Part shown: one piece after another, positions 26,753 through 37,635 of the stretch
How positions within the stretch are numbered: the stretch's first letter is position 1
Layout of the letters: every line of letters starts with the position of its first letter
Assembly: GCA_021783215.1 (NCBI GenBank)
Contig: JAJXUB010000010.1
Span: forward strand, 1-37,635
Reading direction: 5' to 3'
DNA from: Actinomycetes bacterium
Lineage (GTDB): Bacteria > Actinomycetota > Actinomycetes > Actinomycetales > Dermatophilaceae
DNA: 37,635 bases
Notes under the pieces: model-generated
Database searches by the model: none
The model's input: only the letters and a program-made list of their open reading frames with translations
Told to the model about the DNA's origin: nothing
Position numbers and translations under genes: made by a program

Positions 26753-27682
26753 GTGAGCTGTGCGCCGGCCGTCCCCACCACACGACGCGAGAACCTCACC
26801 CGGTTCGCGTGGCTGTCGATCGCCGCGGCCATCACGACGATCGTCATGAAGTCGGGGGCGTACCTGCTCACCGGCTCGGTCGGACTGCTCTCGGACGCGG
26901 CGGAGTCGGTCGTCAACCTCATCGCGGCGTTCGTCGCTCTCGTCGCCCTCAATGTCGCGGCGCAGCCCGCCGACGCCGACCACCACTTCGGGCACAGCAA
27001 GGCCGAGTACTTCTCGGCAGCCGTCGAGGGGATGATGATCTTCGTCGCGGCGATCTTCATCATGGTCAGCGCGGTGCGGAGGTTCCTTCACCCCCAGGTG
27101 CTCGAGAACGTCGGCCTCGGTCTGGCCATCTCGATCCTCGCGTCGGCGGTCAACGGCGCCGTCGCGGTCATCCTTCTGCGTGCCGGGCGTCGCCACAGCT
27201 CGATCACCCTCGTCGCCGACGGCAGGCACCTCATGACGGACGTCTGGACCTCCGCCGGCGTCGTCGTCGCCGTGCTCCTCGTCAACCTCACCGGCTGGCT
27301 CCGGCTCGACCCCATCATCGCCTTCGCCGTCGGCTGCAACATCGTCTGGACCGGTTGGCATCTCGTCCGTGCCTCCGTCGACGGGCTCATGGACAAGGCG
27401 CTCCCGCCCGAGGAGGCGAGGGCGATCGACGGTGCCCTCGCCGAGTTCGCCAGCGAGGAGGTGAGCTTCCACGCCCTCCGCACCCGGCAGGCCGGGCATG
27501 CCCGCTTCGTATCCGTGCACGTCCTCGTCCCGGGCGACTGGACGGTCCGGCGCGGGCACGAGGTCGTCGAGCGCCTGGAGGCGCGTCTGCACGAGGTCGC
27601 CGACAGCCTGGACGTCTCGACCCATCTCGACCCGCGGGAGGACCAGGGCGTCGCCGTGACGTCACGGGGCACCGGACCGTGA
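26753..27682 (+). CDS. Cation diffusion facilitator (CDF) metal exporter
   Basis: Proton-coupled divalent metal exporter (Zn, Fe or Mn; ion not determinable). 309 residues with six hydrophobic helices from about 17 to 215 and a soluble C-terminal dimerisation domain. The transport site is partly canonical: His159 and Asp163 in GRHLMTD, but the TM2 motif reads DAAES (Asp48, Ser52) instead of DxxxD. Start GTG at 26753; the gene diverges from the aldolase over a 50-bp gap. CAGACT at 26741-26746 resembles a leaderless -10. The stop overlaps the next start (GTGA). Confidence 0.88.
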   Translation: MSCAPAVPTTRRENLTRFAWLSIAAAITTIVMKSGAYLLTGSVGLLSDAAESVVNLIAAFVALVALNVAAQPADADHHFGHSKAEYFSAAVEGMMIFVAAIFIMVSAVRRFLHPQVLENVGLGLAISILASAVNGAVAVILLRAGRRHSSITLVADGRHLMTDVWTSAGVVVAVLLVNLTGWLRLDPIIAFAVGCNIVWTGWHLVRASVDGLMDKALPPEEARAIDGALAEFASEEVSFHALRTRQAGHARFVSVHVLVPGDWTVRRGHEVVERLEARLHEVADSLDVSTHLDPREDQGVAVTSRGTGP

Positions 27683-28416
27683 GATGGCTCGCCGTCGACG
27701 AGACGTCCGTCCCGGCAGGGAGCGCGTGGCTGTCCGACCGCGAACGTGAGGTCAGCGAACGCCAGCGGTTGACGAAGCGGCGCCAGGAGTGGCTCCTGCG
27801 CCGGTACGCCATGAAGCGTGCCGCCGCGGTCGCTCTGGGCCGGGGCGCGGCCATCGGCGGCCTCGAGGCGCTCAACGACCCGTCCGGGGCGCCGTACATC
27901 CTCCTCGACGGCAGCCCGGTGCCCATCGCCGTCTCCGTCAGCGACCGCGCAGGGCTGGCCGTCGCCCTCGTCACGTCGGAACGGCACGGGGCGGCGGGCA
28001 GCATCGGCATCGACGTCGAGCTCGTCGAGAGCCGGTCGGACGGCTTCATCCGCGACTTCCTCACCGCCCCCGAACAGCTGTGGACGCTGCGGACGACGCT
28101 GGGGCGCGACGTGGCCGCCAACCTCCTCTGGTCGGCCAAGGAGGCGGCTCTGAAGGTGCTTCGCGTCGGCCTACGGGCCGACACGCGCACGGTCGACGTC
28201 ACGGTCAGGGGTGAGACGCCCGCGGATGGCTGGAGGCCGTTGTCGGTGGCTGGTGCGGGCGGCGTCGTTCTGCCGGGCTGGTGGCGCCGCGACGGGGATT
28301 TCCTCATCACCGTCGTCACCCGCGACGCGGCGGACCCGCCGACACGTATGCCGGGCGGCGTCGACCCGGCCCACGTCACCGCGGCCCACTCGTGGCTGGA
28401 CAACCCCCTCGCGTGA
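27679..28416 (+). CDS. Sfp-type 4'-phosphopantetheinyl transferase
   Basis: Transfers 4'-phosphopantetheine from CoA to carrier proteins. 245 residues. The Mg/CoA motifs are present: GIDVE with Asp112 and Glu114, and WSAKEAALK with Lys154 and Glu155. The frame is open far upstream, but GTG at 27679 overlaps the transporter stop and gives the usual N-terminal WLAVDE-like lead. Length matches Sfp-type rather than the 120-residue AcpS type. It converges with the carboxylase gene, 37 bp away, and the likely substrate is the pair of ACPs in the synthase further right. Confidence 0.9.
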   Translation: MRWLAVDETSVPAGSAWLSDREREVSERQRLTKRRQEWLLRRYAMKRAAAVALGRGAAIGGLEALNDPSGAPYILLDGSPVPIAVSVSDRAGLAVALVTSERHGAAGSIGIDVELVESRSDGFIRDFLTAPEQLWTLRTTLGRDVAANLLWSAKEAALKVLRVGLRADTRTVDVTVRGETPADGWRPLSVAGAGGVVLPGWWRRDGDFLITVVTRDAADPPTRMPGGVDPAHVTAAHSWLDNPLA

Positions 28417-28453: not shown

Positions 28454-33814
<5,361 letters not shown>

Positions 33815-33830
33815 CGACGGTGCCAACGGC

Positions 33831-36800
33831 TCAGTCTCCGTACGTTGCGTGGAGGGCTTCAGAGACGTCGTCTGGTATCGGCGCGGGGAATGCCACGGTG
33901 TCATAGCCCTCGAGCCGGACGACGACGCGGCCCTCGGCGTCGATGACGAGGCAGTCGTACGAGCCGTCGTCCCGGCATACGGCGCGGGCGGTCAGCGGGC
34001 CACCGTCGACGGCTCCGGCCGTCGCAACGCGACCCACGCGAAGCGGGAGGCCGAGCGTCCCCTCCCGACCGGCACCCCACAGACCCGCGGTCTGGAAGCA
34101 CAGCTCGACGAGGCGTGGGGACAGGGTGAGCGGCTTCTCGGCCGGGACGTGGTTGTCGGGGAGTGCGTCGGCCAGGGTCGCGGCTGACGCGTCCTCGTCG
34201 CGCCACGCCTGACCGACGACCTGGTAGGCCGGGCCGTGGAAGTAGAACGCGTAGACCTGGTCCGGACCCAGCCTCGGTTCCCCGGCGGTCGGCACGGGCA
34301 CCGAAGCGAGGGGTTCGGCGTCGGCGCGGGTCAGCCGTACCGTCCCGGTGAAATGGGTCGTCCGGGTTGGGGCCTGCTGACCGGGGAGCCGGCGTTCCGC
34401 GGTCAGGGTGCACCGGGCGAGGAGGTCGCCCACGGTCTCTGCGTCGGGCTCGATGACAGCCGAGACCGTCAGGGTCCGGGGCTCGTCGCGGTAGAACTTG
34501 ACCGGCGTCGCGAACCTCGCGTCCTCGACGGAGGCGACCCGGTAGCCCTCGGGCGCGGCGAGCTCGGCGAGCTCGGCGAAGGACTCGAGTCCCATGACCC
34601 CCGGTAGGACGGGCGTTCCGTCGATCCGGTGGTCGGTGAGGAACCCCTGCTCCGCGGGGTCGAGCGTGATGGTGTCGACGAAACCGTTGTGGACGCTCGA
34701 CGTCACCTCGCCGATCATCGGCCCGTATGCCGCAACGTCCGGCGTGACGGCTGCCGGGTCGAGCCCACCGGCGGCGGCGTGCTCGGTGGCCATCGCCCCG
34801 AGGACACCGGCGACGATGACCTCACCGGTGAAGGCCGAGGCCGTCAGCTCCCGCCGGATCCACGCGACGCCGGCCTCCGGAGGCAGCATCTCGACGCCCG
34901 CCATGGCCATGACCGTGGGGGTCGACCCGCGTGTCGCCATCCCGATGCCGCCCCACGCCGTCCAGTCCATGGCGAGGGCGCGGGTCTGCGGTCGGTCGTG
35001 CCGCAGGTGCGAGGCGACCTTGCACAGGAGGTCGTTGGCGGCGCTGTAGTCCGTCTGGCCGTTGTTGCCGAACCTTCCGGCGACCGACGAGAAGAGAACG
35101 ACGGCGCCGACCTCCATGTCCTTGACGGACCGCCAGACGTTGAACCAGCCGGTCGTCTTGACGTCGAAGACGAGGTCGTACTCCGAGGGTTCCTTGTCGG
35201 GCAGGTTGTGGCTGATCTCGATGCCGGCGGCGTGGAGAAGGACGTCGATATGCCCGCTGCGCTCGCGGATACGCGCGACGGCATCGGCGACGGCATCGGC
35301 GTCGGTCACGTCGACGGAGTAGTAGTACGCGGTGCCGCCGGCGGAGGTCACCGCTTCGATGGCACTGAGGACCGCCGCGCTCCGCTCGATCCGGGAGAGC
35401 TCCTTCTCGATGGCGACGGGGGTGGCCTTGGCGCCGGACTGCCTGAGCCGGCCGGCGATCGTCGTCTTGAGGCCGTCCTTGTCGGTCCGGAACGCCTCGA
35501 TGTCGCGATCGGCCGGGTCGGGTTCGGCGGTGCGGCTGAGGAGGTGGAACGTGCCGCCGCTGGCCGTGGCCAGGTCGACCGTGATGGCCGAGACGATGCT
35601 GCCCGCGGCGCCGGTGATGACGAACACGGACTCGTTCGTCAGCGCCATCCCGCCGGGGCCGACGGGTTCGTCCTCCCGGCGGGGCGGGAACGGCCGCTCC
35701 GTGAAGGCGACGCCGAAGCGGTTGCCGTCGGCGAGGCCGATCTCGACGCATCCAGGGTCGCGCAACGTCTCCTCGAGGAGGAGGTCGGCGATGGCCGCCG
35801 TCTTCCGGCTCGTCGGGAGGTCGACGGCCTTGACGAGGGCGTCGGGGCGCTCCTTCTTGTACGACTTCGTGAAGCCGGTGACGGCGCCGCCGAGGACGGA
35901 CGTCGCCCCGGCCGCGTCGTAGCCGTGGAAGCCGCCGAGCCGGGTGGCGCTGACGAGGAACGGGCTGGTGTCCCAGACGCGGCGCATCGTCGCGTAGAGG
36001 GCCTTGACGCGGCGCCGGAGGGCTTCCTGCCACTGCGGGAGGTCGTATGCGTCGTCGTCGTCGAGCCCGGCGAGCCAGTAGACGCCGTCGACGGGACCGT
36101 CGTCGAGCCACGTCTCGAGAGTCGCGAGGATGTCCTCCGTCGACGTGCCGGCATCGAGCGTCAGTGCGCGGGCGCCGGCCTTGTCGAGGCGCTTTGCCAG
36201 TGCCGCGCCGACGCCACCTTCGTCGAGCATGACGACGACGCGGGCCCCGTCGAGCGAGACCCCGGTGCGCGCGCACCGGTCCGCGGCGGGGCGCAACGCC
36301 AGCGTTGGTAGGCGCCGGGGGAGGGCGTCGACGGCGTCGAGGCTCCCGACGATCCGTTCCGGATGCGTCGCATGGTGGGCCTGGGGCGCCGCGGGGGCTA
36401 CCGGTGCGGCGACCGGTGCCGGGGTGCCGGTCCTGGAGCGGACCCAGCCGGCGACGTGGTTGAGGGTGGGGAAGTCGCGTAGCTGCAGGTCGGGGTCGCG
36501 CTCGAGGTTCCACCGTTCGCGGACGGCGGCGAAGACCTCGGCCTGCTTGACGGTGTCGACGCCGAGGTCGGCCTCGAGGTCGAGGTCGGGGTCGAGCAGG
36601 TCGGTCGGGTAGCCGGTCATGTCGGCGACGATCCCGGTGACCGCGGCGAGGACGTCGTCGCTGCCGGCGGCTGGTGTGCCGGGGGCGGCGGCGGCAAGGG
36701 CGGGGGCTACCGGTGCGGCGACCGGTGCCGGGGTGCCGGTCCTGGAGCGGACCCAGCCGGCGACGTGGTTGAGGGTGGGGAAGTCGCGTAGCTGCAGGTC

Positions 36801-37635
36801 GGGGTCGCGCTCGAGGTTCCACCGTTCGCGGACGGCGGCGAAGACCTCGGCCTGCTTGACGGTGTCGACGCCGAGGTCGGCCTCGAGGTCGAGGTCGGGG
36901 TCGAGCAGGTCGGTCGGGTAGCCGGTCATGTCGGCGACGATCCCGGTGACCGCGGCGACGACGTCGTCCACGGCCGGGCCTGAGGCCACGGGTTTGGGAA
37001 CGGGTTCGGGGACGGGGACGCGGATGGGTGCCGCCGGGAGGGGCGCAGGGACCGTGGGCGGGGGCGGGGGCGGGGCGAGCGCCGGACCCGGAGCCGGCGC
37101 CGCGTGCGGTGCCGACGGGACCGATGCGTTGAGGCGTCCGGCATAGGGCACGGGGACGGCCGTGACATACACGGTCGGCTGTTCCGGCGCGCCGATGTCG
37201 GCCACGCGCAGTCGCCGGTGGTCCACTTCGAGGCGGCTGCTGCCGTGTCCGGAGAGGGTGTCGAGCCAGCGCTGCCACGCCGCCTCGTCGATGATGCGGT
37301 AGGCGAACCCCAGGTGGTCGGGGGTGGGCCGGCGGCCGCTCGCCGTCGGCGTACGACGGAGCAGCGTCATGGCGACCTGCGATCCGAAGCCCGCGGCGAG
37401 GCGAATGGCGTACTCGACGGGGTACGAACCGCCGGTCGACAGGTTCAGCCGGCCCAGCTCCGGGTCGGGGTCACGGTAGTTCGGCACCGGGGGGACGATC
37501 CCGGTCTCCAGCGCCTTGACGGCGACGACGTCCTCGATGCCGGCGCCCATGGCGTGGCCGGTGAAGCCCTTCGTGTTCGTGATGACGATGCGGTCCGCGT
37601 CGGGGCCGAACGCTCGCCGGAGGGCGTTGATCTCC
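33831..37635 (-). CDS. Multidomain polyketide/fatty-acid synthase, N-terminus beyond the window
   Basis: Partial; the frame is open through the right edge. From the N-terminal side: the C-terminal end of a ketosynthase ([13 protein letters not shown], with the conserved Lys and His, 37635 to about 37353), a Pro/Ala linker, two ACPs (about 36980-36700 and 36670-36390), a non-catalytic SDR-like half, a ketoreductase (TGAAGSIV at about 35592-35615; catalytic Tyr codon at 35046-35048 in TDYSAAND), and a C-terminal double-hotdog dehydratase (His codon 34629-34631 in [13 protein letters not shown]; later VELCFQTAG). Both ACPs read GVDTVKQAE, with Thr where the phosphopantetheine Ser is expected. 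No acyltransferase or enoylreductase is visible; they may lie to the right. The product is unknown. It is in one operon with the carboxylase. Confidence 0.88.
36391..36649 (-). repeat. ACP-encoding direct repeat, copy 2
   Basis: Identical over 259 bp to 36700-36958, at a 309-bp offset. One mismatch (36650 versus 36959) and nine further identical bases extend the match to 269 bp. Encodes the second ACP and the following Ala/Pro linker; Thr codon at 36552-36554. Confidence 0.95.
36700..36958 (-). repeat. ACP-encoding direct repeat, copy 1
   Basis: Partner of 36391-36649 with no base difference over 259 bp. Encodes the first ACP and its linker; Thr codon at 36861-36863. Complete identity even at synonymous positions points to recent duplication or gene conversion (or an assembly question to be excluded). 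Confidence 0.95.

What the first reader, a model, noticed from the sequence alone, without database searches (positions are those of the whole stretch)
36552..36863. Both acyl carrier domains have threonine at the phosphopantetheine attachment site
The carrier motif is GVDTVKQAE in both ACPs (Thr codons 36861-36863 and 36552-36554), where type I ACPs normally have DSL or DSI with an essential Ser. The surrounding helix (DLEADLG before it, AAVRERWNL after it) is otherwise a good ACP. Either threonine is modified, perhaps by the dedicated Sfp-type enzyme encoded at 27679-28416, or these carriers act without the arm. I have an impression that DTVK-type carriers occur in related synthases but cannot check.
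Basis: partly seen in the sequence, partly recalled or inferred. Interest (0 to 1): 0.7.

Follow-up and report, generated by a model that had tools for sequence, protein, structure and literature searches.

The report
Acyl carriers anchored on threonine
The carrier domains of this lipid-making enzyme have threonine where carriers normally have serine, and relatives in distant bacteria do too, so the cell very likely hangs its swinging chemical arm on threonine, which would widen a textbook rule.

Summary
Both ACP domains read [10 protein letters not shown], with Thr codons at 36861-36863 and 36552-36554, and score as Pfam PP-binding domains. It is not an error or a decayed gene. The enzyme is a multidomain lipid synthase (KS-AT-KS-ACPn-KR-DH) related to polyunsaturated fatty acid synthases. 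A profile blind to the attachment residue scored 72 non-redundant carrier copies in such synthases of 25 genomes: all Thr. Seven new loci found through the KR-DH part, not the carrier, gave 13 of 13 Thr. Comparable Ser-type synthases gave 16 of 16 Ser; no locus mixes the two. All four Thr codons occur and catalytic motifs are intact. In the window's own genome these are the only PF00550 carriers found, and there are two phosphopantetheinyl transferases: an AcpS beside FAS I, and the Sfp/PptT-fold enzyme beside this synthase. Best explanation: the arm sits on Thr, attached by the neighbouring transferase. The modification is inferred, not shown; engineered Ser-to-Thr in E. coli and spinach ACP is reported to abolish function, so the natural pairing would be special. 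The cluster type was described in 2011 ('Type R'), without mention of Thr. I found no paper on natural Thr carriers in the library searched.

The parts
33831..37635 (-). synthase gene, 5' end off the contig: C-terminal part of second KS, two ACPs, KR, DH
   Evidence: translation; Pfam; domain map; N-terminal part on contig C178 of the same genome
36729..36980 (-). ACP1 (84-residue domain); Thr codon 36861-36863
   Evidence: PF00550 hit 36750-36953
36420..36671 (-). ACP2 (84-residue domain); Thr codon 36552-36554
   Evidence: PF00550 hit 36441-36644
34803..35642 (-). ketoreductase (KR) domain
   Evidence: Pfam KR 94.8 bits; map; motif columns
33834..34742 (-). dehydratase (DH) domain, HxxxGxxxxP motif present
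   Evidence: Pfam PS-DH 46.4 and PKS_DH_N 40.8 bits
28454..33904 (-). single-chain carboxylase (biotin carboxylase, biotin carrier and carboxyltransferase parts); likely malonyl-CoA supply
   Evidence: Pfam; near the synthase in relatives
27679..28416 (+). Sfp/PptT-type 4'-phosphopantetheinyl transferase; the likely arm-attaching enzyme for the Thr carriers
   Evidence: Pfam ACPS 52.1 bits; invariant D112, E114, E155, K159 among 16 sequences; AlphaFold2 pLDDT 90.9; best folds PptT/Sfp type

Best explanation
This is a working iterative lipid synthase of the PUFA-synthase-like kind whose carriers bear the 4'-phosphopantetheine arm on Thr instead of Ser. Shown: the Thr, its invariance, the domain architecture, intact catalytic motifs, the neighbouring transferase. 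Inferred: that transferase moves phosphopantetheine from CoA to the Thr hydroxyl; the carboxylase makes malonyl-CoA; the AT loads it on the arm; the two KS domains condense, the KR reduces and the DH dehydrates, giving a fatty-acyl product that is not known.
For: Masked-residue profile over 57 loci: 109 hits, 84 Thr, 16 Ser, 9 truncated; without 8 loci fetched twice, 72 Thr in 32 loci, 16 Ser in 9 loci, no locus with both. Blind subset (found by KR-DH, new genomes): 13 Thr, 5 truncated, 0 other. Among the 59 distinct Thr carriers collected, codons are ACC 30, ACG 24, ACT 4, ACA 1, and no Ser column is conserved (this set was selected for Ser or Thr at the site and Lys two after it, so it tests codons and alternatives, not the Thr itself). 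Catalytic motifs: KS1 Cys and both His 17 of 17, KS2 Cys in 20 of the 20 that cover it, KR Tyr 23 of 23; AT GHSLGEY and SHAFH 19 of 19; DH HxxxGxxxxP 22 of 22; the own genome's KS1, AT and KS2 Cys also intact. Own genome: the only PF00550 hits at E up to 0.001 (2 of 12 candidates scored) are these two; PF01648 hits twice, one just downstream of a FAS I-like frame whose ACP region has Ser at the expected place by eye, the other in this cluster. Transferase near 16 of 19 relatives with at least 3 kb held downstream. Folds as expected.
Against: Engineered Thr fails elsewhere: E. coli ACP(S36T) is stated not to be modified by 4'-PP and does not complement (PMC3340395, passages), and spinach ACP-I Ser38 to Thr is said to change conformation and lose function (PMC9310384 quoting older work, passages). 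Three Thr synthases (G545, G433, G424) have no transferase recognised in the held neighbourhood, also with a profile. G020 and G090 hold further PF00550 domains, and 8 of 16 genomes searched have three or more PF01648 hits, so exclusivity is argued for the window's genome only: a 196-contig assembly, 97.96% complete. The FAS I ACP match is below its family cut-off (21.7 vs 30.6 bits). No product or modification is shown.
Confidence: 0.82

Rival explanations
1. The Thr domains carry no arm: structural or docking relics, while another carrier (stand-alone ACP or the FAS I ACP) feeds the synthase.
For: Engineered Ser-to-Thr is reported to abolish function in E. coli ACP (PMC3340395) and spinach ACP-I (PMC9310384).
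Against: Thr is kept in 72 of 72 copies with all four codons rather than drifting; tandem copies are kept; AT, KS, KR, DH motifs are intact; no other PF00550 carrier was found in the own genome; a transferase lies near most clusters.
Confidence: 0.1
2. The arm sits on a different residue of the domain.
For: Other invariant Thr (in TGYP and PTL) exist.
Against: No Ser is conserved; the TGYP Thr is also present in 12 of 14 Ser-type carriers, so it is not a replacement; the DTVK Thr aligns with the Ser of solved ACPs and starts a helix.
Confidence: 0.03
3. Sequencing or assembly error or pseudogene.
For: The two copies are 94% identical and contigs of relatives break in the repeats.
Against: The same Thr occurs in 25 genomes and the reading frame is open.
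Confidence: 0.005

Closest known systems
'Type R' secondary lipid (Pfa-like) synthase clusters of Shulse and Allen 2011 (PMC3098273; passages and section 8 seen)
   Same: order KS-MAT-CLF-ACP(n)-KR, a PPTase gene downstream, part of an acetyl-CoA carboxylase between them in Koribacter; Acidobacteria among the hosts
   Different: here a C-terminal DH is present and the CLF position keeps the KS Cys; the word threonine occurs 0 times in that paper's main text; its member sequences could not be fetched here
PUFA synthase PfaA (NCBIfam TIGR02813)
   Same: tandem ACPs with TGYP and EADLGxD motifs, KS, AT, KR
   Different: Pfa-like controls read here have Ser (DSIK, in one locus DSVK); the truncated P0001 scores 289.5 bits against a cut-off of 1010.1
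Sfp/PptT-type phosphopantetheinyl transferases
   Same: fold and acidic metal-site residues
   Different: 15-22% identity to the PptT and Sfp chains listed; expected acceptor is Thr
Engineered Thr carriers: E. coli AcpP S36T, spinach ACP-I S38T
   Same: Thr at the attachment site
   Different: man-made and reported non-functional (PMC3340395; PMC9310384; passages only)

Membership tests
Acyl carrier domain (PF00550) | profile match and ACP fold | tested here: met
   47.3 bits vs cut-off 20.8; best PDB folds are ACPs
Acyl carrier domain (PF00550) | Ser as phosphopantetheine attachment residue | tested here: not met
   Thr in both copies and in 72 of 72 non-redundant copies of the family
Type R Pfa-like synthase | KS-MAT-CLF-ACP(n)-KR order | tested here: met
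   domain map of relatives; window gene split over two contigs
Type R Pfa-like synthase | PPTase gene downstream | tested here: met
   window (5.4 kb beyond the DH, after the carboxylase, opposite strand); 16 of 19 loci with at least 3 kb held
Type R Pfa-like synthase | PPTase motif P1b' hShxH | tested here: not met
   window has Asp for His (SVSD); His is present in part of the relatives
Type R Pfa-like synthase | KS phylogeny with Koribacter, Solibacter, Elusimicrobium, Roseiflexus | not testable with these tools
PfaA (TIGR02813) | score above curated cut-off | tested here: inconclusive
   289.5 vs 1010.1 bits, but on a protein cut by the contig end
Sfp-type PPTase | fold and GxDxE...WxxKE motif | tested here: met
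Sfp-type PPTase | transfers the arm to these carriers | not testable with these tools
   needs biochemistry

The most novel reading that the evidence does not exclude
A whole lineage of natural carrier proteins, found in genomes filed under at least two phyla, holds phosphopantetheine on Thr, and its transferases have become Thr-specific and so orthogonal to the Ser carriers of the same cell.
Probability: 0.4. Interest if true: 0.8.

Novelty: new variant of a known kind. Interest (0 to 1): 0.64.

Why it matters
The Ser attachment site is treated as a defining feature of carrier proteins. A natural Thr-bearing family would widen that rule, explain why these domains look 'inactive' to a motif scan, and offer a carrier-transferase pair that may not cross-talk with ordinary ones. 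It also makes the unknown product of these lipid clusters reachable: anyone expressing them with a standard transferase could get only apo enzyme.

Tried and rejected
Error or pseudogene: rejected by other genomes and intact motifs. Other attachment residue: no conserved Ser. Pattern matches that are not carriers were set aside after reading context: L095, L112, L106, L107, L120, L093, L050 and L134, L138, L139, L144, L140; two matches that read a stop codon (G251, G726) were not examined. Left out of counts: loci fetched twice (L021, L025, L100, L115-L119; overlap checked); L099 from the KS1 count, because a frame break splits that domain; 3 of 19 transferase rows (L085, L094, L116) from alignment A2. 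Plasmid search for the tandem ACP: no match. Paper searches for Thr carriers or the motif: searches gave 0 papers; one search gave 3 and one search gave 5, of which I looked at passages of three in all: one quotes the spinach Ser38 mutant, one concerns DST motifs (Thr after the Ser), one a helix IV Thr; one search matched 93 papers for short motif strings, 20 listed, unrelated by title and not opened (the 7-10-letter motifs had 0 occurrences in those 20; GVDTVK 1 in each of two). KS tree (27 domains): 17 main Thr-type KS together; the two KS of L085, a Thr synthase of another architecture, fall outside, so the KS tree does not say whether Thr arose once. ACP tree with the site masked: all 59 Thr carriers together, support only 0.784. 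After the one-time check the confidence went from 0.83 to 0.82 because of the spinach mutant.

Full report
Observation. On the - strand the contig's last gene (33831 to beyond 37635) ends KS-ACP-ACP-KR-DH. Both ACPs read [26 protein letters not shown]; the Thr codons are 36861-36863 and 36552-36554. Pfam PP-binding scores 47.3 bits. The rest of the synthase, KS1-AT-start of KS2, lies on contig C178 of the same genome, with the KS1 Cys and His motifs, AT GHSLGEY and the KS2 Cys intact.

Is it conserved? A search with the KR-DH part only, so blind to the carrier, found 12 loci in genome contigs. Eleven are close relatives (48-65% identity) and one (L027, 26%) is not. Two of the eleven (L021, L025) are the genomes that gave two of the three query rows; the other nine are new there, though L017 overlaps a genome met. 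In the nine, the masked profile sees 13 Thr, 5 truncated and no other residue. L017 and L020 start after the carriers; the genome of L017 has one DTVK match on another contig and that of L020 has none held, so L020 says nothing. In one search, 8 of 10 genomes matched, 20 matches, all Thr.

Pattern surveys that allow Ser, Thr and some other residues: 396 genomes of the window's phylum, 16 matched: 4 with Thr carriers, 9 with Ser matches (5 read as carriers), 2 not carriers, 1 unexamined. 159 genomes of the phylum of L026 (record titled Acidobacteria), 18 matched: 12 Thr carriers, 4 Ser carriers, 2 not carriers. 118 of the phylum of L023 (record titled Bacteroidetes), 5 matched: only L023's own genome has carriers (Thr), 3 not carriers, 1 unexamined; that MAG contig could be misfiled. 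249 of the phylum of the Ensifer genome, 16 matched: 11 Ser (3 read as carriers) and 5 not carriers, three of these chance Thr matches. Among 97 genomes of the relatives search, 4 including the own genome have the exact motif.

A profile with the attachment residue masked, run on 57 loci, gave 109 hits: 84 Thr, 16 Ser, 9 truncated before the site. Without 8 loci fetched twice there are 72 Thr in 32 loci and 16 Ser in 9; no locus holds both. The 72 lie in 25 genomes (my count, with G031 and G486 taken as one). Most of these loci were fetched through a pattern that asks for Lys and I, V or M around the site, so those neighbours are partly selected; the residue itself was free to be Ser. In the 59 distinct Thr carriers the codons are ACC, ACG, ACT and ACA and no Ser is conserved. 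With the site masked, they group together (support 0.784).

What it is. The fuller relatives are KS-AT-KS-ACP(1-4 seen)-KR-DH, many with a single-chain carboxylase and a transferase. One relative, L085, has Thr carriers in a KS-KS-AT-ACP3-KR arrangement. This resembles the 'Type R' cluster of Shulse and Allen (PMC3098273; passages, section 8), apart from the DH, the retained KS2 Cys and, in the window, an Asp in the P1b' motif. That paper's main text does not use the word threonine.

The transferase. 27679-28416 encodes an Sfp/PptT-fold enzyme with the acidic metal-site motif invariant in 16 aligned sequences, the window included. It lies near 16 of 19 relatives for which at least 3 kb downstream is held, 18 of all 24 with a KR or DH. 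Of the six misses, G545, G433 and G424 were rechecked with a profile and stayed negative; L016, L020 and L092 are cut short. In the own genome PF01648 hits twice: here, and on C114 just downstream of a 2995-residue frame read by eye as FAS I. PF00550 hits only in these two ACPs. So the cluster transferase has no other visible partner of that family.

How it most likely works. The transferase attaches phosphopantetheine to the Thr hydroxyl; the rest is ordinary iterative lipid synthesis. The modification is inferred. Against it: E. coli ACP(S36T) is said not to be modified and fails to complement (PMC3340395, passages), it also loses IscS binding (PMC13343975, passages), and spinach ACP-I Ser38 to Thr is said to lose function (PMC9310384, passages). 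I take this to argue for a special pairing more than against modification, because the natural Thr family keeps its catalytic machinery.

Novelty. Seven paper searches gave no natural Thr carrier; the library lacks most subscription journals, so prior notice cannot be excluded.

Noticed in passing
window 27943-27945: The transferase has Asp where the xSxSH motif has His (SVSDRAG); shared by the actinobacterial relatives closest to the window and by L022 and L024, while others have His.
   Followed up: partly
window about 33360-33460: The carboxylase's ATP-grasp part seems to lack roughly 60 residues present in L014, as does L011; Pfam CPSase_L_D2 starts at profile position 91. Seen by eye.
   Followed up: no
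L012 16676-18535 and relatives: The second KS keeps the KS Cys (20 of the 20 that cover it) where PUFA synthases have a chain-length factor, suggesting two active ketosynthases.
   Followed up: partly
L085 (G568): A Thr-carrier synthase with KS-KS-AT-ACP3-KR order and KS domains outside the main clade.
   Followed up: partly
L003-L010 contig ends: Assemblies of relatives break inside the tandem ACP repeats, so the two copies in the window may be an undercount.
   Followed up: no
L015 8959-10779 and L012/L015 upstream: By eye, an acyl-CoA-dehydrogenase-like and an Fe-S-protein-like gene lie upstream of the synthase. Names recalled, not tested.
   Followed up: no
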